Source: JAYEMH01 sp034717985 [NCBI: Candidatus Ratteibacteria bacterium] | Lineage (GTDB): Bacteria > CAZDME01 > JAYEMH01 | DNA length: 14,816 nt | Reading direction: 5' to 3' | NCBI GenBank assembly: GCA_034717985.1 | Contig: JAYEMH010000002.1 | Coordinates: 1-14,816, forward strand | In this document: positions 381 to 10,707 of the stretch, one piece after another | How the letters are laid out: the number at the start of each line of letters is the position of its first letter | How positions within the stretch are numbered: position 1 is the first letter of the stretch | The notes under the pieces: model-generated | Databases searched by the model: none | What the model saw: only the letters and a program-made list of their open reading frames with translations | What the model was told of the DNA's origin: nothing | Translations under genes and position numbers: made by a program

Positions 381-3300
381 TTATGCTCCCGAAAGCTCTC
401 GCAGGGATTCTTTGTATTCTTTGTACTCTTTTTCTATATCCCCGGCTTCCACCGGCGGCAGGTCAATAAACATTTCCCGGACAGTTATTGCCGACTCCAG
501 GGCGTCTGCCAATGAATAGATGTATTTCTCGTCTGCCTCTTTGAAAATGACAATCGGTACATTCCGCTCTTTTGAGAAACGCTTGAGCTGAACCCGGTTT
601 TGAGCTTCAACTGTTCCTTTGATAATACAGAGAATATTTTTCTCTTCTCCTATCAGGGTTTCTATTTCCTCTATTTCAGCAGCCTTATCTTTGAGTCCCA
701 GTTCTTCTTTTGTTTTCTTTGTTATTTTCAACTCCGGGGCAGTTTCCTTTATTAACCCTTCTAAAATCTTGTTATATACCGGGTCTTCGGCATATAAAAT
801 CACCTCTCCTAATAGATTATTCTTTACAATAATTCCTAAACTTTCTTCTAAATCTATAACCCCGCAATTATTTAATAACGGCTCGGCATAAAAAATAAGG
901 GTTTGGGGGACAGCAAATTCATTTTTATTTTCCGCCACGGCCTTTTCTAACGCCTCAAGGTTCTTATCATATTTTTCTTTTACCGGCTTTTCCAATCTTA
1001 ATGCCTTTACGGCCGCCTTAAAAGAACAGAAAGCAGCAATCCCTGCTTTATAATTTGCCAATGATATAGCGGCTCCATATTTCATTGCCTCGGCAAAAGG
1101 TCCGACGGCATCATGGGTAAAATCAGCCGGGTGGGAAATGAAACCATGGATAAATGATTTATCTGTTTCGCCCCGGCGGATGTATTCTTCCAACAAATGG
1201 GCAAGCTCATGAATTATCACATCGGTTCCCTCATTATTAAACGAATTAAATTTAAGTTCTTTATTAAGAAACATAGTCATTTTCCCTTGGTATGTTCTAA
1301 ATCCTCCGTTAAATGTAACATTTTCAACTAAAAGAATTTGCTCTATACCAAACTGTTCCGCTATAGCCGAGGCAAAATTTACCAACTCCCATTCCAAAAA
1401 GGAATATTTATCTTCCGGCACAATAATCCTTTCTGGATATCGTAGGCTATTATGCGCTCTGGTTATGTCCTCAGCGGCGGCAATTTTTCCCCGGCTATAA
1501 GGAACTTCACTTAAACTTAATTTTTCGCTTATGTCTAATCCTGACTTCTCTAACATTTCCGCCTGCTTTCTGGCTAAATCTGCATTTACCTCCTCTTGAA
1601 TAGCCAGGCGGCGAAGTAAAAGGCTAACCTTTGAATTTGGCTTGGTCCGGTCGGCAGCCGTCTCTAAAAGAAGCAGGACTTTTAAAATTTTTCTCTCTTT
1701 ATCTAATTTCCCCGGTTCAGTCAAAAGCTCTTTAAGCTCTTCTTCGCTAATCCCGGCGTACTGCTCTTTATTAATTTTATTGGCCAGACCAACTAAGGCT
1801 TCATCATTCAAATCAATAGATTCCCAGTAACTGCCGTTGGTTTCCCAGTCTAAAGGTAAGCCCTCAAACACAAACTGGGGGCTGGTCTGGGTTAAGGTCT
1901 TATAAACAATGGCTTTATAAAACTCAATGGCAGTATATTTTTGAATTACCGGTAAATATTCATTTTCATATTCAAAGGCGCTGCGGCCGCGTATTAAGGC
2001 TAAGGGAATTTGAATAATCAGTCCCAATTCTTTAATATGCTTATGTAAAGAGGCCGGAATAAATTTTAAATACTCCTCTTTAATCACACCAACCCTAAGT
2101 CCGGCCTTATCTATTATCTGTAGAGGCATATCTTTTGCCCCAATTATTTTCATTTTGCCAAAATTAGTCTCTTTATCATCCGGCTTTGAAGCAATAAAAT
2201 CGGTTTGGCTCAATAGTTCTTTTTCTACCACTAAGGGCTGTTTGTTTCCTTGATAATCAATAAAATAAATCCGGAAATTCTCATCCTGAGCCAGGCCGGC
2301 AAAAGTCTTATATGCCCTTTTGGAAAGAATAGCTTCAAGTTCGGGAATAGTATTATCAACTTTGGTAATCCGTTTAATGCTAACTCCTTGTTTTACCCTC
2401 TTATCGTTAATTTTGCGTATACCGATAAGTTTAACTGTCCGGGTTTTACCGGCGCTGTCTTTATTGACCCTGAAACTAAACATATAAGCCCGGTCCTGGT
2501 TTTTGCTAATTATCTCCAGCCGGTCAACCCCTTCAAACATAGTATATTTACCGGTGCCAAAAAATCCGGCAAAGTCTATCTGTTCGCCTTTATCCTTAGT
2601 TGATTTAGAAATAATCAAAGCTGCTTCTTTCAGAGCGCCGGTACCGTTATCCATTGCTTCTTCCACATATTCTTCCTCCCCCCGCTCATTTTTCTGAAGA
2701 TAAAAATCAATTATTAATTCACCTTTCCGTCCGGACGGAATGGCATCTTTTGAATTCTGGACAATTTCCCGGCTATGGGCGCCGGACTCGGCCTGAACGG
2801 TTATATCTTTCAATATTTTCTGCTCTAAAACATTCGACCTTTCAGGAAGATTGTTAATATTCTGAAGAAGATAATCCATATCCATCACTACATCTTCGTC
2901 TCCATCTTTGGCTCTCTGTTTTTCTAATTGCTCCATTTGAGAAATCTCTATGCCGGCATCAGGCAACAGAATATCCTCGCCCGTAGGAATAAAACGCTTT
3001 CTCATTCTTATCGGCTCTACTTCATTAGTGAGAAAAATCACAAATGGCCGCGCCTCGGCTAAATTATGAGATTCAGACGGTTCATTCAGATAATCGGTGA
3101 GCGTATTTAAGTCAATATCAGCAAAGGCCCGGCTTAATTTGCCTAAAAATACCTTTTTTGCTTCCGGTTTTGCTTTTAAAATTTTTCGCGCTTGTGTTTT
3201 TAACAAAGCTGTATGCCTGGCCGGCTCCCGGGCGGTAAAATAAGAGAGAAATTCAACTATCTTTCTAATCTCTGCCCGGCCAATTTGCTGATAAGAGGCC

Positions 3301-6300
3301 TCTTTAAGATTCTCAATCAGTTCACCAATGAGAGAGATAAGGTCAATTTGTTCCGGTGTGTTTATATCCCAATTATTGGCTAAAACTTCAAAAAAGACCG
3401 CATCAATAGTATCTATATTTAGGACAGGATTTTTACTTAACTCAAAGAGCTTGCTAAAAAGAGAGGTATAAAAACCTTTTTGAATATTATATTCCTCTTG
3501 TGAAAGTAAATCTCTTTTTGAGGCAATGTATTCCGGAAGAAGAAGTATGATTTTTTCCATCCGGATCCTAAAAATATCAAAAGGCAAAGAAGTTTCCAAG
3601 TCTAATGGTTTATCCTTTAGGACATCATGGAATCTGTTAATAATCTCCTGCTCCTCATCTTCATATAATTTGGTAATCTCCCCTTCAATTATTCGCTTTA
3701 TCTCTCCCTTATATTCTTCCGGAATTAGTTTAAGAAATGGCTGATAGGCGCTTCTTGCTTGTTGAATAAACTCATTTTTTCTGGAAACAATACTTTTCTC
3801 CCATAATTTAATGGCTTTTTTCTCATCCTTGGTTTCGGCAATTTGAGGACGCGTTCCTGAAGAAACAAAAATCGGCTCTTCAGGCTTCTCCGGGTCAAGA
3901 TAAATCACATCACCATTTTTGGGATTGACAAAAACAAAATACTTGCCGTCAAAAGAAACACTGTTATAATCTTCGGAGCTGATTAAAAGAGGCCTATCAT
4001 GTTCCTCATCCGGGACATAATGACTGTCAAGGTACCAGCTTTTTAGGTTTTCAGAAATCCAAAGATAAAAATGAGTATGGAGTTTATTATCTGTAATACC
4101 TTTCCTGTCCAACAGAAATCCCCCCGTCTGGATATAAATATATCCTTTCTTTCTATCATCATAACGCAATCTTCCAAACCCGCGCCGATCAACAATTATC
4201 TCCCCCTGATAAGAAATCCTTCTCCCTGTTTCGGGAATTATGGCCTGGGGATGGGCCGGGTCGGAGTTGTCAATAAAAAGATTGAAATAAGGGTGTTTAT
4301 AGGCCCCTTTTCTATCAAGCCGCTGGAGAGGGTCCCTGTCAATCTGGATAAAAATAACCCCTGGTGTTACCTTCGTACCAGATGTTTTTGCAGAAACTAT
4401 ATATCCCCCACCGCCAGCATAAGACCATTCTTCGCAAAAATCATAATCAAAAGGAACGGAAGAATCCATAGTTACTTCACCTTCCTTACTCAATTTATAA
4501 TTTTTGTATCCTTCTGTTCTCACCTTATAATACATTTTACTTCCCTTCCACTCTGTAGTTACATCCTTTATCTCTTCTCCCCCAAAATCAGCTTGGCTAA
4601 GAAATTTCCCTGTTTTATGAAAATAGATAAGGTTTTGACCATTTACATCAACAATTGCCGTATAGGTGCCGCTGGAATCAGTGTGCAGTTGTTGTCTGTC
4701 GGTTATTACAATACGATTTTTTCGCGTCAAATCATACAAAGTCATTTGTCCGCTCTTTTTATCCCGAATAAAGGCCAAATTAGCAAAAGGATTAAGGGCA
4801 TATTCTATATCCTCGTTTCCTAAACCAAAAAGGCTAATTATTTCATTGGTGTCTTCCGTTTTTACAATAACAAAAATTTGCTCGCCTGAGGCCAATTTTT
4901 TAATATAAGTCAAATATTTTCCGTCCCGGCTGAACTGCAGGTCAAAATAAGTATTTTTTCTTAATTTCGGTGAAAGCACACCCACTGGTTCCGTGGAAAA
5001 ACCGGATTGTAAATTATAATGTTTTCCGGTCTCTAAATCCCAAACCGAACTTTTAATTTCGCCTTGCCAATCAACAGTATAAACAAATCGTTTGTTGGGA
5101 GAAAAGACTAAATTTTCTATCTCAGAAATCATAATTAAACCCTGAGATTCGCCCTCTAATTTATATAATCCCCATACTTCTTCAAACTCTACTTTGTAAT
5201 ACCCATTAATTAACGGCACTATACTTTTAACATCCTTAAACATTCTCATCCCTGTTCCCACTTCTACCAAATCCCCGTTCTCCAAAAGAACATACTTTTG
5301 ATTGGCATCCGCAGGAACCTTTCCTGCTCCATCCTGAGTCAGAAACGGGGAATTGATAAGAAATTTATTAATCGCCTCAGCATCAATCTCACCGGCGCTT
5401 TTTGCAGTTTCGCTTATAGAAGCCAGGAGCAAATTTTCTCTGGGTTTAGTTACCTCATAAGAGGTAACTACCTCTTCGGCGGTAATAATATTAACCATTT
5501 GTAAAAGGGCGGCTAATTCCTTCTCTTCCTCTTCTCTTAATCCTTTAGCCCTTTTACCGGTAAGTTTCAGCAACCGCTGACTTCCCGATAAGTTTTCGGG
5601 CAGGGCAATAAATCCATCAGTTTTGATCATTGGCAGACGCTCTTTTTCTGCCCAGGTATGCCAGTCCCGATGAAATCTTGAAATACCCTCAAAGGTATCT
5701 TCTTTAAAAGGAATAAGAACCAGGGGCAGGTGTTTCTCTCCGCCCAAAGTTACACCTCTAACCACCTTACCCCCGATTTCCTTAAGCCCTATTGCTCCCT
5801 GCCAATTAAAAAGATTTTTATTTACAAAAAGCGGCTTTTTATTTTCCGGAATAGCTATTTTTTTAAATTCTTCTTCCTGCGGAAGAAAGACAATTTCCTC
5901 TTCCTTAAGTTCGCTTATAATCCCGGAGAGGAGTTTCTGAATATTTACCCGGAGGCCTCTAATCATATAGGCATAATTCTCATTTTCCTGAATTAAACCT
6001 TCTATACCTATCACCAGGGTATTAATGTATTTCACCTTTTCCAGATTGGACAATTTGGGATGGTCAATGATTTTGGCAATACTATGCTCTACGGCTAATT
6101 GAAAATTGGATTTTTCACCGGGCTTAAGCTCAAACGGAATAATAATCGTATCCCTGGATTCCGGAACATCCAGGAGAGAGCCGAATTCAAGCATCAGCCC
6201 GCCTTTGACTGCCGCCTCCGGCACAATATCCCCAGGTATATCAACGGTTACTACCACTTCACTGTTTCGGGAAAAAGAAATTTTATCCGGAAGAGAAGCA

Positions 6301-7556
6301 TCCTGCACTACCTTAACCTTAGCTAACTCCTTCTCGGCCGCTTTACCGCTTAAAGGCTCCGGATGCTCAATAACCCCGGGTACAAACATCCCGGAGATAA
6401 TCTCGGCATTCATACCCCGGCCATTATCAATTACCTTTATGGTTTGCTCAGTTAGTTCAACCTGGACAAATCGGCCCTTGCTTTCTGCCGGAATAGCCGA
6501 CATATCGGAAGAAACAATACTTTTTTTCTCTTCGAATCCATTCACCTTTTCTTTTTCCCGGCCGCCCACTTGAGTAGTAATTTCTGCCTCGGTAACATAA
6601 GGAAACCGTTTGTGAATACCCGAGATAATACCTTCTTGAGAATTGCGATGTTTCCGGTCTAAGTCCTTATCGGTTAGGGGAATCTTCTTTTCAGTACTTA
6701 CCTTCAGTATTGTTCCCTGCTTTATTGCCTGGCCGGCCGCTTTCTGAAAATCTTGAAGAGAAATTTTTCTAATCCGAATATAATTTTGTCCCTGACTGTC
6801 TTTAAGTATGGTCAGTTGATACGGCGTCCCTTCTTTTGCTCTGGAAAAAACATCTATTCTATCTCCTCCGCCGGGCTTTAACCAGCTGAGAATTTGCTTA
6901 ACCCCTTTGCCGAATTGTTTAATATTCAGGCCTAAAGCGTCTAAACTATTGGAAACTGCTTCATAAACGCCTTGTGCCTGCGGATTCTCATTTTGGTGGG
7001 TGATGTCGGTTCGTAAAGGAGGGTCTTGCTGAGGATAAGTGCGGCCGTTAATAAGGTCAATAATTTCTTTGTGATAATTGCCTTCAGCTAAGTTTTTATA
7101 AATCTCTCCATATATCCTATCTTTAGACAGGCCTGCTTTAATACCCAGGACAGAAACAACTTTTGTTAACTTCTCTTGCGATAAACTCTGCCCGGCCAGA
7201 ATTGTTTGCGCCCAGACAAAATGCTCTAAATCAACCCCGGAAAAATCTTGATTAGATCCTGAATATTCAAAGGACTGTTGAGTTTCTCTGGCCGTCTTTG
7301 CCTCATCTTCAACTCCTAATACTATATGAAGCTCTTGAAGAATTGCCGGCTCTTCTTTTACCGGCGTAGCCCGTAAAAAAGATTTTTCTCTTTGCCGGCC
7401 GGCCCAGCCAGTATCTACCCAAACCACATTAAATAAAAACGCCCCTATAATAGCTATAGAAGTTATCTTCAGGAGCCTCTTCCGTATATCGTATTTCGTA
7501 TTTCGCATCTCGCTATCAATTTTTCTCATAAATGACTTATCTATTTCTATCCGCAT
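381..7556 (-). CDS. Giant exported composite protein: two GHKL ATPase-like modules, beta-propeller-like centre, HELAH peptidase motif
   Basis: The protein has 2391 residues and no function I can name. The N-terminus is basic, then hydrophobic at 31-47, ending GWA at 50-52, like a signal peptide. Module 1 carries an N-box (YEAVSNSLDA, 198-207), a lid-like FGKGVKQ (215-221), GT (281-282) and DNGRGM (377-382), an order unlike normal GHKL domains. The region at about 745-1237 has propeller-like repeats (SPNKRF, SRDGKY, SFDGKY). About 1240-1560 looks helical. Module 2 has the usual order: REIVQNSKDA (1596-1605), DNGTG (1636-1640), FFGTGK (1665-1670). HELAH (2116-2120), with E2156 downstream, suggests a zinc peptidase. 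The last 150 residues look Rossmann-like. The first ATG has no clear Shine-Dalgarno sequence; ATG at 7508, or a CTG after GGAAGAGG (residue 29), are alternative starts. An upstream riboswitch and flanking repeats suggest a regulated, mobile or recently duplicated unit. Confidence 0.93.
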   Translation of the reverse strand: MRIEIDKSFMRKIDSEMRNTKYDIRKRLLKITSIAIIGAFLFNVVWVDTGWAGRQREKSFLRATPVKEEPAILQELHIVLGVEDEAKTARETQQSFEYSGSNQDFSGVDLEHFVWAQTILAGQSLSQEKLTKVVSVLGIKAGLSKDRIYGEIYKNLAEGNYHKEIIDLINGRTYPQQDPPLRTDITHQNENPQAQGVYEAVSNSLDALGLNIKQFGKGVKQILSWLKPGGGDRIDVFSRAKEGTPYQLTILKDSQGQNYIRIRKISLQDFQKAAGQAIKQGTILKVSTEKKIPLTDKDLDRKHRNSQEGIISGIHKRFPYVTEAEITTQVGGREKEKVNGFEEKKSIVSSDMSAIPAESKGRFVQVELTEQTIKVIDNGRGMNAEIISGMFVPGVIEHPEPLSGKAAEKELAKVKVVQDASLPDKISFSRNSEVVVTVDIPGDIVPEAAVKGGLMLEFGSLLDVPESRDTIIIPFELKPGEKSNFQLAVEHSIAKIIDHPKLSNLEKVKYINTLVIGIEGLIQENENYAYMIRGLRVNIQKLLSGIISELKEEEIVFLPQEEEFKKIAIPENKKPLFVNKNLFNWQGAIGLKEIGGKVVRGVTLGGEKHLPLVLIPFKEDTFEGISRFHRDWHTWAEKERLPMIKTDGFIALPENLSGSQRLLKLTGKRAKGLREEEEKELAALLQMVNIITAEEVVTSYEVTKPRENLLLASISETAKSAGEIDAEAINKFLINSPFLTQDGAGKVPADANQKYVLLENGDLVEVGTGMRMFKDVKSIVPLINGYYKVEFEEVWGLYKLEGESQGLIMISEIENLVFSPNKRFVYTVDWQGEIKSSVWDLETGKHYNLQSGFSTEPVGVLSPKLRKNTYFDLQFSRDGKYLTYIKKLASGEQIFVIVKTEDTNEIISLFGLGNEDIEYALNPFANLAFIRDKKSGQMTLYDLTRKNRIVITDRQQLHTDSSGTYTAIVDVNGQNLIYFHKTGKFLSQADFGGEEIKDVTTEWKGSKMYYKVRTEGYKNYKLSKEGEVTMDSSVPFDYDFCEEWSYAGGGGYIVSAKTSGTKVTPGVIFIQIDRDPLQRLDRKGAYKHPYFNLFIDNSDPAHPQAIIPETGRRISYQGEIIVDRRGFGRLRYDDRKKGYIYIQTGGFLLDRKGITDNKLHTHFYLWISENLKSWYLDSHYVPDEEHDRPLLISSEDYNSVSFDGKYFVFVNPKNGDVIYLDPEKPEEPIFVSSGTRPQIAETKDEKKAIKLWEKSIVSRKNEFIQQARSAYQPFLKLIPEEYKGEIKRIIEGEITKLYEDEEQEIINRFHDVLKDKPLDLETSLPFDIFRIRMEKIILLLPEYIASKRDLLSQEEYNIQKGFYTSLFSKLFELSKNPVLNIDTIDAVFFEVLANNWDINTPEQIDLISLIGELIENLKEASYQQIGRAEIRKIVEFLSYFTAREPARHTALLKTQARKILKAKPEAKKVFLGKLSRAFADIDLNTLTDYLNEPSESHNLAEARPFVIFLTNEVEPIRMRKRFIPTGEDILLPDAGIEISQMEQLEKQRAKDGDEDVVMDMDYLLQNINNLPERSNVLEQKILKDITVQAESGAHSREIVQNSKDAIPSGRKGELIIDFYLQKNERGEEEYVEEAMDNGTGALKEAALIISKSTKDKGEQIDFAGFFGTGKYTMFEGVDRLEIISKNQDRAYMFSFRVNKDSAGKTRTVKLIGIRKINDKRVKQGVSIKRITKVDNTIPELEAILSKRAYKTFAGLAQDENFRIYFIDYQGNKQPLVVEKELLSQTDFIASKPDDKETNFGKMKIIGAKDMPLQIIDKAGLRVGVIKEEYLKFIPASLHKHIKELGLIIQIPLALIRGRSAFEYENEYLPVIQKYTAIEFYKAIVYKTLTQTSPQFVFEGLPLDWETNGSYWESIDLNDEALVGLANKINKEQYAGISEEELKELLTEPGKLDKERKILKVLLLLETAADRTKPNSKVSLLLRRLAIQEEVNADLARKQAEMLEKSGLDISEKLSLSEVPYSRGKIAAAEDITRAHNSLRYPERIIVPEDKYSFLEWELVNFASAIAEQFGIEQILLVENVTFNGGFRTYQGKMTMFLNKELKFNSFNNEGTDVIIHELAHLLEEYIRRGETDKSFIHGFISHPADFTHDAVGPFAEAMKYGAAISLANYKAGIAAFCSFKAAVKALRLEKPVKEKYDKNLEALEKAVAENKNEFAVPQTLIFYAEPLLNNCGVIDLEESLGIIVKNNLLGEVILYAEDPVYNKILEGLIKETAPELKITKKTKEELGLKDKAAEIEEIETLIGEEKNILCIIKGTVEAQNRVQLKRFSKERNVPIVIFKEADEKYIYSLADALESAITVREMFIDLPPVEAGDIEKEYKEYKESLRELSGA

Positions 7557-7744
7557 TTCGTAAAAACAAAAATTTTACCACTGAAACACTGAATTTAAGA
7601 AGCACAGAATTTTAAAAAAATTTATGCCATAACTCCATGGGTCTATATTTCAAATTCATTTTTCAGCATTTCCGAGCTTCCGTGCTTCAGTGGTTAATTT
7701 TCTTTTTTTGTTTTTCGCTTTTATTTTTTCTCTGTGTTCCCTTG
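7517..7744. repeat. Right copy of the direct repeat; contains the giant gene's start
   Basis: This copy covers the first 13 codons of the giant gene (7518-7556) and about 190 bases of its leader. It is the partner of 127-361. The match begins at caatttttctc and runs through gtgttccctt, with one 7-base length difference. Because coding sequence is included, the repeat is not purely intergenic. Confidence 0.92.
7577..7694. repeat. Small inverted-repeat-bounded element (copy 2)
   Basis: This is the same element as 187-304, with inverted ends accactgaaacac and gtgcttcagtggt. It sits inside the leader of the giant gene, so the transcript from the riboswitch promoter would have to cross it. The ends could pair in the RNA into a long imperfect stem. 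Confidence 0.55.
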
Positions 7745-7890
7745 TGAGCTCTGTGGTTATTTTTTTCCTCATCCCCCTTTTCGCGCCTGCCCCGCAGGCT
7801 TGTCCTTCGGGGTCTTCCTTCTCCCGCCTATTATTCGTGAGAATCTGTGTCCATCTGTGGTTCAATTTCTTTTCCTGTGGTTATTTTGCT
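7745..7890. repeat. Degenerate 'tctgtggtt' type intergenic repeat
   Basis: The segment contains repeated ctgtggtt units (near 7750, 7855, 7875) and the phrase gaatctgtgtccatctgtgg. In other frames this translates to HRWTQ-like peptides, a known artefact of dispersed environmental-genome repeats. The 69-codon minus-strand frame across it (7656-7865) is low-complexity, very basic and starts within the repeat motif, so I do not call it a gene. It forms part of the long leader between riboswitch and giant gene. Confidence 0.5.
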
Positions 7891-7933
7891 TTTTCTTTCC
7901 CCTTTTTCCTTATTTTTTTGTTTTTCTATCAGA

Positions 7934-7953
7934 GGGACGGGCGTGCCCGTCCC
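7934..7953. repeat. Perfect GC-rich palindrome
   Basis: gggacgggc and gcccgtccc are separated by two bases. This is a REP-like palindrome in the giant gene's leader. There is no U-tract on the minus strand after it, so terminator function is unlikely. Confidence 0.6.
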
Positions 7954-7976
7954 CTACATATTTTTTGATTCTTTTT

Positions 7977-7994
7977 AAATCCTGTAAATCCTGT
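7977..7994. repeat. Two tandem aaatcctgt units
   Basis: The 9-base unit aaatcctgt occurs twice in direct succession. This phrase is another common short intergenic repeat. It lies immediately beyond the U-tract of the riboswitch terminator. Confidence 0.6.
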
Positions 7995-7999
7995 CAGAA

Positions 8000-8041
8000 A
8001 AATAAACAGGCTGAGCCACCTATATCCTAGGCAACTCAGCC
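8000..8041 (-). terminator. Riboswitch expression platform: intrinsic terminator
   Basis: On the minus strand the arms GGCTGAG (8035-8041) and CTCAGCC (8009-8015) pair. The stem continues inward through TGCCTA/TAGGTG with two G-T pairs, and the RNA then reads TGTTTATTTTT. The loop-proximal stem uses the bases CTAGGA (8025-8030) that also form the 3' strand of aptamer stem P1. Aptamer and terminator are therefore mutually exclusive, as expected if ligand binding allows read-through into the giant gene. Confidence 0.7.
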
Positions 8042-8155
8042 ATCTTAATTGCTCAAGACCTGTAGTTTTGCCGTGAACCACGTAGGATTCACGGCCCTGC
8101 ACCCAAGGTGATGCAGGGCGTCCTTATGTTTCCATAAGTTTACCTTTATCTAGAA
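8025..8155 (-). ncRNA. Variant cyclic di-GMP-I (GEMM) riboswitch aptamer
   Basis: Read on the minus strand, the landmarks come in GEMM order. P1 5' strand is TTCTAG (8150-8155). AAAGGTAAAC (8138-8147) corresponds to the canonical CAAAGGCAAAC. A hairpin CTTATG-GAAA-CATAAG (8123-8138) carries the GNRA loop. GGACG (8119-8123) and CAAAACTACAGG (8059-8070) together match the canonical GGACGCAAA core. A short TCTT/AAGA stem is followed by ATGGCTGAGTTGCC, like the canonical ATGGCNGGGTTGCC. P1 3' strand is CTAGGA (8025-8030), pairing with TTCTAG over six base pairs. The core is interrupted by 48 bases. The class assignment is by eye against the known family and has not been scored by a covariance model. 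It precedes the giant gene by about 450 bases. Confidence 0.65.
8071..8118 (-). other. Two-hairpin insert splitting the GEMM core
   Basis: This stretch is made of two hairpins with no bases to spare. CCCTGC...GCAGGG (8095-8118) has a bulge. CCGTGAA...TTCACGG (8071-8094) has a one-base bulge and loop TACGT. Deleting exactly these 48 bases restores GGACG-CAAAACTACAGG. The insert could be a peripheral extension that stacks on the junction, or a second sensing or protein-binding element. Confidence 0.6.
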
Positions 8156-8175
8156 CCGAATATTAAATCATATAA

Positions 8176-8204
8176 AGTATACCACATAATACCCGCTAAA
8201 GCAA
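8176..8204 (-). promoter_or_regulatory. Sigma70-type promoter of the riboswitch leader
   Basis: Minus strand -35 TTGCTT (8199-8204), a 17-base spacer, then -10 TATACT (8176-8181). The start should fall near 8169, about 15 bases before aptamer stem P1. Spacing and hexamers are close to consensus, which supports a transcribed leader rather than read-through from the toxin gene. Confidence 0.7.
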
Positions 8205-8261: not shown

Positions 8262-8744
8262 TTATGTGTAATGCTGAAAAAAATGTTCGGGCGTAAAGGC
8301 AGTGATGAACCGCGAAGCAATCTTGAGAAACTCGCTGTCACGAGAAATAAAAACGGTAGGTTTTAAGGTAATAGCTAATCCCAATAATATTGCATCAAAA
8401 GGGTCTAATTTGTTCTGCGCCTGCAATTTATTTGCCTCAAGCAGGCCTATTTCGTCAGGAATAACAACCTCGAGAATACTTGTAATTTCATTAATAGAAT
8501 TTTCAATTTGGTGTTCACTGTATCCTTTTTTCCGTCGCAAGAGATATCTGATTTCTAAAAGGGTGGTTAGGCAAGTTAAACCTTTAAATTTCTCACTTTC
8601 AATAAGGGTGATTATGTTATATGGTGTTTCCCAAAGTTTCCTTTTGGTCGATGTTTCAACCTCTTGGGTAAGCCAGTTAACAACCACATCAGTATCAAGA
8701 ATGATGGCCTCGATATTCTCTGGATTACGATTTGACTTTGCCAT
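8262..8744 (-). CDS. PIN-domain RNase toxin (VapC-type)
   Basis: 160 residues. The acidic residues of PIN nucleases are in place: D17 and D19 in LDTDVVVNW, E64 in TTLLEIRYL, D114/D117 in DPFDAILLG and D136 in SRDSEFL. In this family they bind Mg2+/Mn2+ and the enzyme cuts RNA, often tRNA, when not neutralised by its antitoxin. The target here cannot be told from sequence. It starts 20 bases inside the preceding small gene, with AGAGG about 8 bases before its ATG, so the two are translationally coupled. The N-terminal extension before the first strand is slightly longer than usual. The gene appears intact. Confidence 0.85.
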   Translation of the reverse strand: MAKSNRNPENIEAIILDTDVVVNWLTQEVETSTKRKLWETPYNIITLIESEKFKGLTCLTTLLEIRYLLRRKKGYSEHQIENSINEITSILEVVIPDEIGLLEANKLQAQNKLDPFDAILLGLAITLKPTVFISRDSEFLKIASRFITAFTPEHFFQHYT

Positions 8745-9140: not shown

Positions 9141-9443
9141 TTACTGTTCTAACTTTTTCAATCTATGGAACAATTCGTCATATACTTCGTAATCTCTTCG
9201 AATGCCAACCTTAATCACTAAAACCAAGATTTTATCTTTTACTATTCTATAAATAACTCTATACTCCCCTATCTTTAACTTCTGATAATTCTTGTATAAT
9301 CCTCTCAGCGGTTCTCCGTATTGTTCCGGATTTTTAGAAAGCTTTTTCCTGATGACTTGTATAATCTTCTTCTTTTGATGAGCGTCTAATTTCTTAAAAT
9401 CTTTTTCTATAACTAAACGATGGATTTTAACTTTCCATATCAT
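9141..9443 (-). CDS. RelE/ParE-family toxin
   Basis: 100 residues from the ATG at 9443 (MIWKVKIHR...), the usual opening of RelE-like toxins. A longer start at 9476 would add a lysine-rich tail and overlap the antitoxin. The sequence shows the family pattern: an N-terminal strand, a lysine-rich helical pair (KDFKKLDAHQKKKIIQVIRKKL), then PLRGLYKNYQKLKIGEYRVIYRIV and KVGIRRDYEVY. RelE proteins cut mRNA in the ribosome, while ParE relatives poison gyrase; the R-rich C-terminal half favours RelE but does not prove it. It begins 4 bases after the stop of the Phd-like gene, a classic antitoxin-first operon. Confidence 0.85.
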   Translation of the reverse strand: MIWKVKIHRLVIEKDFKKLDAHQKKKIIQVIRKKLSKNPEQYGEPLRGLYKNYQKLKIGEYRVIYRIVKDKILVLVIKVGIRRDYEVYDELFHRLKKLEQ

Positions 9444-9447
9444 TTTC

Positions 9448-9723
9448 TTAAATTTCTTCTTCGGCCTTTTCGGCATCTATATAGTCTGCCAGGTTAGAAT
9501 TTCTCTCTCTTTCCTTAGCCAGATAACCTAAGGCAAAATCTTCCAGGAATTCCAAGGCTTTTTCCATCTGGTTGTATTTTTCAATATCCAAAAGCACAGC
9601 CATCAATTTATTTCTCTTCCCGATTAAAACCTTATGATCTTTTGCTGTCTTTAGAATTTCATCTATCTTTGTCCTTAATTCAGACACCCCGACCAGGGTT
9701 GTCTTTTTATCAAAAGTATACAT
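9448..9723 (-). CDS. Phd/YefM-family antitoxin
   Basis: 91 residues from the ATG at 9723, chosen because GGAGGTG lies at ideal distance just before it; the ATG at 9738 precedes that site. The Phd/YefM signature is visible: VGVSELRTKIDEILKTA, then VLIGKRNKLMAVLLDIEKYNQM, the DNA-binding fold. The acidic C-terminal tail (EKAEEEI) would be the disordered toxin-binding part. It should neutralise the RelE-like protein encoded 4 bases downstream and repress its own promoter. AT-rich near-repeats of atttaaa upstream are plausible operator sites. Confidence 0.85.
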   Translation of the reverse strand: MYTFDKKTTLVGVSELRTKIDEILKTAKDHKVLIGKRNKLMAVLLDIEKYNQMEKALEFLEDFALGYLAKERERNSNLADYIDAEKAEEEI

Positions 9724-9742
9724 CTCTTTCACCTCCATTTAA

Positions 9743-9920: not shown

Positions 9921-10166
9921 TTATCTCAAAACGTTCAATATCTTTTGCTTCTCAGCTTTATTAAAGTCCTTTCCATAAAACCTTAAGAAAATTTCCTTTC
10001 TCATCGTCTGAGATGTTATTCCTGGATTATGATTAGCTATCGCATTCTTTACGATTTGTTTAGCCGTATCAAACATAGAACAACCCATAAGCAATCTTTC
10101 TTCCTTGCTTTTTGCCATAATAAGTTGATAAAATTTGGAATTCATTGCCGGGCTAGTATCAATCAT
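9921..10166 (-). CDS. Small conserved partner of the nucleotidyltransferase
   Basis: 81 residues, no named function. It has a mainly helical composition with the block RLLMGCSMFDTAKQIVKNAI (25-44) and a C-terminal FLRFYGKDF. I recall similar small proteins beside nucleotidyltransferase genes in other bacteria, but cannot verify this here. Its ATG lies inside the last codons of the preceding gene (8-base overlap), so the two products are likely made together and may bind each other. There is no HEPN R-x4-6-H motif, so it is not a standard HEPN/MNT toxin. A role as antitoxin, toxin or adaptor is open. Confidence 0.75.
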   Translation of the reverse strand: MIDTSPAMNSKFYQLIMAKSKEERLLMGCSMFDTAKQIVKNAIANHNPGITSQTMRKEIFLRFYGKDFNKAEKQKILNVLR

Positions 10167-10707
10167 TTTTCACTTCCTTATATATCTGGCTTAAATCTAA
10201 CTTTCCTATCCAGACTTTAATATAGTCCATATCAAGACCCTTTACCGTCCCTAATAAGTTTCGCACGTCGTTTAATTGCATTTCTGAATGGCTGCTTTTA
10301 GCCCAATTTAACTTTGCTAAAATTAAATCTTCGGCTGAAATAAACCACATTGGATTGGTTTCTATTAAAATTTTTTTTCTTCGAAGGAAAGCAGTGTTTT
10401 GAAACTCTGTTCCTTTTCGAATAATAAAGTCTATTTTAATCACATATTGATTATGGATCAGATTAAATATACCTTGCTGCAAAATTTCTTTTTTAATCAT
10501 TTCCTTGTCTATGTAAAAATCGCTTTGAAAAAGGTCAACGAATTTATTGACATCTGGATATGCCAATTCTATGACAATATCTATATCCCTGGTCATGCGT
10601 GGCACCGTATAATAATTTGCCGCAATAGAACCTGAAATCATATAGGTGATATTCGCCTTATTTAAACGCTGGGTAATTATCCTCAGCACTTCAAGTTCTT
10701 CAGTCAC
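10159..10707 (-). CDS. MNT/AbiEii-like nucleotidyltransferase
   Basis: 182 residues. The core of the polymerase-beta nucleotidyltransferase fold is present: G26-S27 (MISGSIAANYY), D41 and D43 (TRDIDIV) and the third acidic residue D93 (IKIDFII), which together bind the metal and NTP. The C-terminal half (AEDLILAKLNWAKSSHSEMQLNDVRNLL) matches the helical tail of AbiEii/DUF6036-like proteins. Members with known roles transfer nucleotides to tRNA or proteins, some as toxins in type IV or MNT-type systems. The substrate is unknown here. It follows the dCMP deaminase gene by 25 bases and may be read from the same operon. Confidence 0.8.
   Translation of the reverse strand: MTEELEVLRIITQRLNKANITYMISGSIAANYYTVPRMTRDIDIVIELAYPDVNKFVDLFQSDFYIDKEMIKKEILQQGIFNLIHNQYVIKIDFIIRKGTEFQNTAFLRRKKILIETNPMWFISAEDLILAKLNWAKSSHSEMQLNDVRNLLGTVKGLDMDYIKVWIGKLDLSQIYKEVKND

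What the first reader, a model, noticed from the sequence alone, without database searches (positions are those of the whole stretch)
8000..8204. Promoter, GEMM aptamer and terminator form a complete riboswitch ahead of the giant gene
The sequence shows, in order, a -35/-10 pair with 17-base spacing, a P1 stem, a GAAA-capped hairpin, GEMM core words, and a terminator whose stem re-uses the P1 3' strand. Established: c-di-GMP-I riboswitches control secretion, adhesion and motility genes, and P1/terminator competition is their usual logic. Inference: the 2391-residue protein is switched on by c-di-GMP.
Basis: partly seen in the sequence, partly recalled or inferred. Interest (0 to 1): 0.75.

Follow-up and report, generated by a model that had tools for sequence, protein, structure and literature searches.

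The report
Four-way-junction c-di-GMP riboswitch in Omnitrophota
The window holds a c-di-GMP-type riboswitch whose sensor carries two extra side hairpins next to the ligand pocket, and the same two-armed design recurs in dozens of related uncultured bacteria, so it looks like a structural variant of a known RNA switch and not a broken copy.

Summary
On the minus strand, 8155-8025 folds as a GEMM-I (c-di-GMP-I) aptamer followed by a 14-bp terminator (8041-8009) that re-uses the 3' strands of P3 and P1: an ON switch by layout. The -35 box is poor; the -10 position is supported by relatives. Rfam sees it weakly (RF03167, 32.3 bits, gathering 59); a 48-nt insert (8119-8072) between C44 and G45 is the likely cause.

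That insert is the real finding: two abutting hairpins that make a four-way junction beside the pocket. The same architecture was found in 66 elements from 48 Omnitrophota genomes (a lower bound). Stems covary, arm loops are not conserved, the core is kept (of 60: GNRA loop 60, A47 60, G20 57). A model whose training rows exclude the window scores it 91.1 bits. In 24 evenly drawn genomes 10 of 73 GEMM elements are two-armed. Five more were read in a deltaproteobacterial group.

Control of the 2391-residue gene is unproven: its ATG lies 468 nt downstream (median 82.5 in 62 elements), and 0 of 8 loci of relatives has a GEMM upstream. Ligand and switching are inferred. New variant of a known kind.

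The parts
8199..8204 (-). TTGCTT, candidate -35 box (3 of 6 to consensus)
   Evidence: read; not listed by the promoter scan
8176..8181 (-). TATACT, candidate (extended) -10 box, 28 nt upstream of the aptamer match
   Evidence: -10-like boxes enriched at this distance in relatives, 79 of 137 against 26-37 in control stretches
8150..8155 (-). P1 5' strand UUCUAG
8142..8144 (-). positions 20-22 (G, G, U); G21 and U22 pair with C46 and G45
   Evidence: helix 2 is 100% paired
8123..8138 (-). P2 with GAAA tetraloop
   Evidence: GNRA in 60 of 60 two-armed elements of A2
8120..8122 (-). GAC linker (42-44)
   Evidence: GAC or GGC in 58 of 60
8094..8119 (-). extra arm A, hairpin GCCCUGCA...UGCAGGGC
8072..8093 (-). 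extra arm B, hairpin CGUGAA...UUCACG, abutting arm A and G45
8069..8071 (-). G45, C46, A47 of the pocket
   Evidence: A47 in 60 of 60 two-armed elements of A2
8033..8067 (-). P3
8025..8030 (-). P1 3' strand CUAGGA
7998..8041 (-). intrinsic terminator (stem 8041-8009, U-rich tail) sharing the P3 and P1 3' strands
381..7556 (-). 2391-residue ORF, first long ORF downstream on this strand; presumed target
   Evidence: link unproven

Best explanation
This is a GEMM-I (c-di-GMP-I) riboswitch of a structural subtype in which two short hairpins are built into the GAC/AAA internal loop between the GNRA-capped P2 helix and the ligand pocket, making a four-way junction. P2 and the two-pair core helix probably stack on each other so that the GNRA loop can still dock on P3, while arms A and B form a side arm that protrudes. 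c-di-GMP binding stabilises P1 and P3; their 3' strands are then not available for the terminator, and transcription reads through (ON switch). Without ligand the more stable terminator forms. Shown: anatomy, recurrence, covariation, core conservation, mutually exclusive pairing. Inferred: ligand, switching direction, stacking and docking, the role of the side arm (most likely to preorganise the junction or to tune folding time), and control of the downstream giant gene.
For: R2, whose rows exclude the window, 91.1 bits. 66 elements in 48 Omnitrophota genomes, besides the window, with the same GAC-armA-armB-GCAAA order. Arms 99% and 98% paired, every one of 10 counted pairs with double changes. 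58 of 60 inserts fold alone as two abutting hairpins against 89 of 3000 shuffles. In six similar elements aligned by MAFFT, RNAalifold finds both arms unprompted, with compensatory changes. Core kept: GNRA 60/60, A47 60/60, G20 57/60, linkers AAA 56/60 and GAC/GGC 58/60. Terminator state -68.2 and forced aptamer state -58.8 kcal/mol; of five transcript ends folded, 8023 and 8015 give P3, and 8010, 8005, 7999 the terminator.
Against: No binding or expression data. No Rfam match at gathering. Only 9 of 67 two-armed elements have a terminator that clearly overlaps the aptamer 3' strand, so ON logic is not general in the class. The terminator state is 9.4 kcal/mol better, so the switch must be kinetic. 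P1 pairs only 73-74% of cells across the class. On the six-element alignment two measures do not clear the shuffles (pairs with double change 10 of 500, further pair types 73 of 500), and RNAalifold there pairs columns 10-13 with 128-131 in place of the core helix. Across unlike elements, pairing in the arms could partly reflect independent gain of palindromes. The target gene starts 468 nt downstream.
Confidence: 0.8

Rival explanations
1. The insert is a palindromic mobile-type repeat that landed in an ordinary GEMM riboswitch and is neutral or has broken it.
For: 12 of 60 two-armed elements carry a CCGCC...GGCGG arm, and in the loci of those 12 the same palindrome recurs outside the aptamer (6 seen, 0.2 in shuffles). 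Other GEMMs of the phylum carry extra hairpins in P2 (by eye).
Against: Same site, two arms, no linker in 67 elements; pocket and GNRA loop conserved; compensatory changes among similar elements. In the other 47 loci of A2 two-armed elements CCGCC palindromes are near chance (8 against 6.2). Four words taken from the window's own arms occur once each in the window.
Confidence: 0.12
2. The side arm is a second regulatory input (a protein, RNA or second ligand binds it), so the element is a two-input switch.
For: Recurrent two-arm geometry; arms sit beside the pocket.
Against: Arm loop sequences and lengths are not conserved, and loops A and B have no run of 5 or more Watson-Crick pairs in 60 of 60, which speaks against a common specific partner.
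Confidence: 0.08
3. The aptamer is real but senses another cyclic dinucleotide.
For: The best Rfam model was the GGC variant; the base equivalent to G20 is called a selectivity factor (PMC9262584, passage).
Against: The window has G at 20 and A at 47, which I recall as the canonical set (alignment); the G of the GGC consensus at that place is absent.
Confidence: 0.1
4. The riboswitch does not control the giant ORF but a transcript that ends in the 450-nt spacer, or a lost gene.
For: 468 nt from aptamer to ATG, the largest gap among the 62 two-armed elements with a called ORF; no GEMM upstream of giant-gene relatives in 8 of 8 loci.
Against: The only listed ORF between on this strand is a 69-residue TTG frame; same strand; promoter-like sites in between are no more than in shuffles.
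Confidence: 0.3

Closest known systems
c-di-GMP-I (GEMM-I) riboswitch, Rfam RF01051
   Same: GNRA-capped P2, P3, pocket words GGNAAA and GCAAA; terminator competition
   Different: 48 extra nt forming two hairpins between C44 and G45; the Rfam consensus reads GACGCAAA unbroken there
c-di-GMP-I-GGC, Rfam RF03167
   Same: best-scoring Rfam model (32.3 bits)
   Different: window has A where that consensus has G (position 47); below gathering score
c-AMP-GMP (GEMM-Ib) variant
   Same: same fold (recalled)
   Different: window has G20; the variant has A20 (recalled; the G20 equivalent as selectivity factor is from a passage of PMC9262584)

Membership tests
c-di-GMP-I riboswitch (RF01051 clan) | P2 hairpin with GNRA tetraloop | tested here: met
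   GAAA at 8132-8129
c-di-GMP-I riboswitch (RF01051 clan) | pocket bases G20 and A47 | tested here: met
   8144 G and 8069 A in the alignments; numbering recalled from the Vc2 literature
c-di-GMP-I riboswitch (RF01051 clan) | P1 and P3 helices | tested here: met
   window; across the class P1 is only 73-74% paired
c-di-GMP-I riboswitch (RF01051 clan) | score above Rfam gathering threshold | tested here: not met
   no match at gathering; RF03167 32.3 against 59 bits, RF01051 score hidden by clan competition. A scoring rule, not a physical feature; the insert is the likely cause
c-di-GMP-I riboswitch (RF01051 clan) | binds c-di-GMP and changes expression | not testable with these tools
   needs bench work
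c-di-GMP-I-GGC (RF03167) | G at position 47 (GCGAA in the consensus) | tested here: not met
   window reads GCAAA
two-armed GEMM-I subtype described here | two abutting hairpins between C44 and G45 with the core kept | tested here: met
   R2, rows without the window, 91.1 bits over all 126 positions

The most novel reading that the evidence does not exclude
Omnitrophota have evolved a distinct four-way-junction architecture of the c-di-GMP-I aptamer whose side arm is a working part: it sets the folding time or affinity of the pocket, or receives a second input, so that one phylum runs many c-di-GMP switches with individually tuned side arms, some of them assembled from dispersed palindromes.
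Probability: 0.35. Interest if true: 0.8.

Novelty: new variant of a known kind. Interest (0 to 1): 0.6.

Why it matters
It shows that a well-studied riboswitch core tolerates, and in one phylum often carries, a four-way junction beside its ligand pocket. About one in seven GEMM elements in an even draw of Omnitrophota genomes has it (10 of 73), and 6 of those 10 fall under the RF01051 cut-off or are missed, so c-di-GMP regulons of this phylum are undercounted. It gives a natural set of arm variants for testing how peripheral helices tune a riboswitch.

Tried and rejected
Close relatives of the giant protein in genome contigs: none; a second scan with the glyA product gave entry points. The own genome is not held. 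GGC and c-AMP-GMP subclasses were considered and dropped because of A47 and G20. Pairing between arm loops: none. Dispersed repeats of the window's spacer in the loci: of eight words tried seven were absent and one (ACCACAGAG) was below chance, 8 against 15.9. Alignment A8 was not used, because its L332 row was taken on the wrong strand. A claim that one-arm inserts never occur was dropped: in 150 aligned Omnitrophota rows the junction is 3-4 nt (83 rows) or 28-75 nt (67 rows; some of the 83 repeat a place), but L342 from the deltaproteobacterial group seems, by eye, to have a single hairpin, and L266 (Omnitrophota) is a divergent element with one hairpin near the site. The 75 rows of A2 were picked for length and model score, so 60 of 75 is no frequency; the frequency comes from the 24-genome draw, where every match over 100 nt was read, but not every shorter one. 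Of the downstream proteins I scanned 60 of 61 two-armed (one spurious ORF left out; the window's was not in the 61) and 70 of 73 others (two repeats of an ORF and L094 left out); each was cut at 400 residues.

Full report
Where it is. The window codes for purE, yrdC/sua5-like, low-molecular-weight phosphatase, rpiB, glyA and dCMP deaminase (purE and yrdC named by eye). Matches to all six lie in loci L037 and L031, and to all but the deaminase in L056 and L041; L037, L031 and L041 are titled Omnitrophota, and L056 bears a genus name that I recall as Omnitrophota. I therefore take the window as Omnitrophota; this is an inference, since no genome is held for it.

The observation. On the minus strand one reads a -10-like box TATACT (8181-8176) 17 nt after TTGCTT, P1 (8155-8150 with 8030-8025), a GAAA-capped P2 (8138-8123), GGUAAA, GCAAAAC, P3 (8067-8033) and a terminator (8041-8009 and U-rich tail). 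The terminator stem contains the 3' strands of P3 and P1, so aptamer and terminator exclude each other. Of five transcript ends folded, 8023 and 8015 give the aptamer's P3, and 8010, 8005 and 7999 the terminator; over 8169-7999 the best fold has -68.2 and the forced aptamer state -58.8 kcal/mol. This is the layout of an ON switch with a kinetic decision.

Rfam. No family reaches gathering. In E-value mode RF03167 matches 8153-8026 with 32.3 bits, E 7.6e-6, full length. The G of its consensus at position 47 is absent: the window has GCAAA.

The insert. Between C44 (8120) and G45 (8071) lie 48 nt, which fold as two hairpins. In five genomes reached through glyA loci titled or recalled as Omnitrophota, four GEMM elements had two hairpins at the same place, by eye (L088, L100, L102, and L093/L097 which are one element). 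I built model R1 from three of these and the window. It ranked the left-out L100 next, though only just above an ordinary GEMM (54.9 against 54.2 bits). Over 384 genomes of the phylum, 322 had an R1 match at E up to 0.5, but R1 also matches ordinary GEMMs, and the list of matches was cut. I took the listed matches of 105 nt or more; of 75 aligned matches 60 are two-armed, the window included. Seven more came from the even draw. Together: 66 elements in 48 genomes, besides the window (counted by hand from handles and the locus list); a lower bound.

Is it structure? On A2 arms A and B are 99% and 98% paired, and each of the 10 counted pairs has changes on both sides; 0 of 500 shuffles reach the totals, and slid versions fall to 30-45% paired. 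That alignment was fitted to the structure, so I tested in two other ways. Each insert folded alone gave two abutting hairpins (ends and joint within one unpaired base) in 58 of 60, against 89 of 3000 dinucleotide shuffles; median z -4.65, weakest -0.77. And six similar elements aligned by MAFFT gave both arms in RNAalifold without guidance, with double changes in one pair of arm A and two pairs of arm B. Against it: with six rows, double-change pairs (10 of 500) and pair types (73 of 500) are reached by some shuffles, and RNAalifold put columns 10-13 with 128-131 in place of the core helix. A model from 56 two-armed relatives (R2) scores the window at 91.1 bits; its rows exclude the window but were aligned by R1, which includes it. 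It gives ordinary GEMMs of the phylum 57-63 bits in four tried.

Is the aptamer alive? Among the 60: P2 loop GNRA 60, A47 60, G20 57 (A in 2, C in 1), 5' linker AAA 56, P2-arm linker GAC 47 or GGC 11. The arm loops have no common sequence that I see and no A-B complementarity (0 of 60 with 5 or more pairs; permuted mean 0.08). I read this as a structural side arm, with P2-P3 docking kept. That P2 stacks on the core and A on B is inference.

How common? In 24 genomes taken as every sixth handle of an even draw of 145, RF01051 gave 75 rows, of which three pairs are halves of one element; R1 added one. Of 73 elements 10 are two-armed, in 6 genomes, 5 of them in one genome. Among those read none is clearly one-armed; L266 is divergent, with one hairpin near the site; others have extra hairpins inside P2 or P3. 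Six of the 10 are under the RF01051 cut-off or missed.

Elsewhere. Of the R1 matches listed for 50 genomes reached through other loci, only two reach 100 nt; both were read and have no arms. In the phylum of G414 (the genome of L043, titled delta proteobacterium), R1 gave 102 matches in 247 genomes and R2 a cut list in 297; of the long ones read, five are two-armed by eye: L323, L326, L332, L336, L341, with the core pair swapped to C21-G46. L342 seems one-armed. The five share stem words, so one lineage is likely. In the phylum of G415, 198 genomes gave 72 matches, none over 100 nt. In the phylum of G410, 199 genomes gave no listed match over 112 nt; the list was cut, and the five of 112 nt have a long P3 and no arms.

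Origin of arms. 12 of 60 elements have a CCGCC...GGCGG arm, and this palindrome is dispersed in the same 12 loci (6 seen, 0.2 in shuffles) but near chance in the other 47 (8 and 6.2). Some arms may thus come from a repeat family. This concerns origin; the fixed site, paired arms and kept core argue against mere damage.

Target and platform. Downstream genes of two-armed elements resemble those of other GEMMs in the phylum: response regulators 6 of 60 and prepilin-type N-terminal motifs 6 of 60, against 3 and 5 of 70. A terminator that overlaps the aptamer 3' strand is found in 9 of 67 two-armed and 8 of 80 other elements; further down in 43 and 48; none in 15 and 24. The giant ORF starts 468 nt after the match. 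It has relatives in 11 of 193 genomes at E up to 1e-10. Eight loci hold the N-terminal side with 1500 bases upstream of the match, about 1.2 kb before a start like the window's; 0 of 8 has a GEMM. Their own starts were not mapped. Control of the giant gene therefore rests on position alone.

Literature. Searches of the open library for riboswitch with Omnitrophota (0 papers), c-di-GMP riboswitch with four-way junction and insertion (2 papers, seen as listings), and wider terms listed nothing that names this architecture; a search on giant genes in Omnitrophota gave 5 papers, seen as listings. Passages were read in PMC9262584, PMC6274999, PMC9481103 and PMC7266159. Four papers that I looked up by DOI, recalled as key structure and variant papers, are not held, so absence from print is not established.

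Noticed in passing
L088, L134, L139, L143, L174, L182 downstream of the aptamer: By eye, a second copy of the P3 3' strand lies in or beside the 5' arm of the terminator; such a duplicated strand would suit an OFF switch by strand competition.
   Followed up: partly
L092, L096, L098, L099, L214, L260: Other Omnitrophota GEMMs have extra hairpins inside P2, by eye, another kind of elaboration.
   Followed up: no
window 381-7556 (-): Giant 2391-residue protein with a weak HATPase match (1597-1717, under the cut-off), a HELAH motif at residue 2116 and Omnitrophota relatives in open frames of up to 5601 residues.
   Followed up: partly
window 8262-8744, 9141-9738, 9921-10707 (-): PIN-domain gene, ParE/Phd-YefM pair and an Rv0078B-like antitoxin (weak) beside an ORF without Pfam match that looks like a nucleotidyltransferase by eye: toxin-antitoxin type genes between the metabolic genes and the riboswitch.
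   Followed up: no
window 7560-7998: Spacer with repeat-like words (ACAGGATTTACAGGATT, GGGACGGGCACGCCCGTCCC, CACAGATGGACACAGAT) that may have pushed the gene away from its switch; the words were not found in the fetched loci.
   Followed up: partly
L123 (same place as L260): A GEMM with G47 (GGC type) in Omnitrophota genome G114; six rows of A3 have A at position 20.
   Followed up: no
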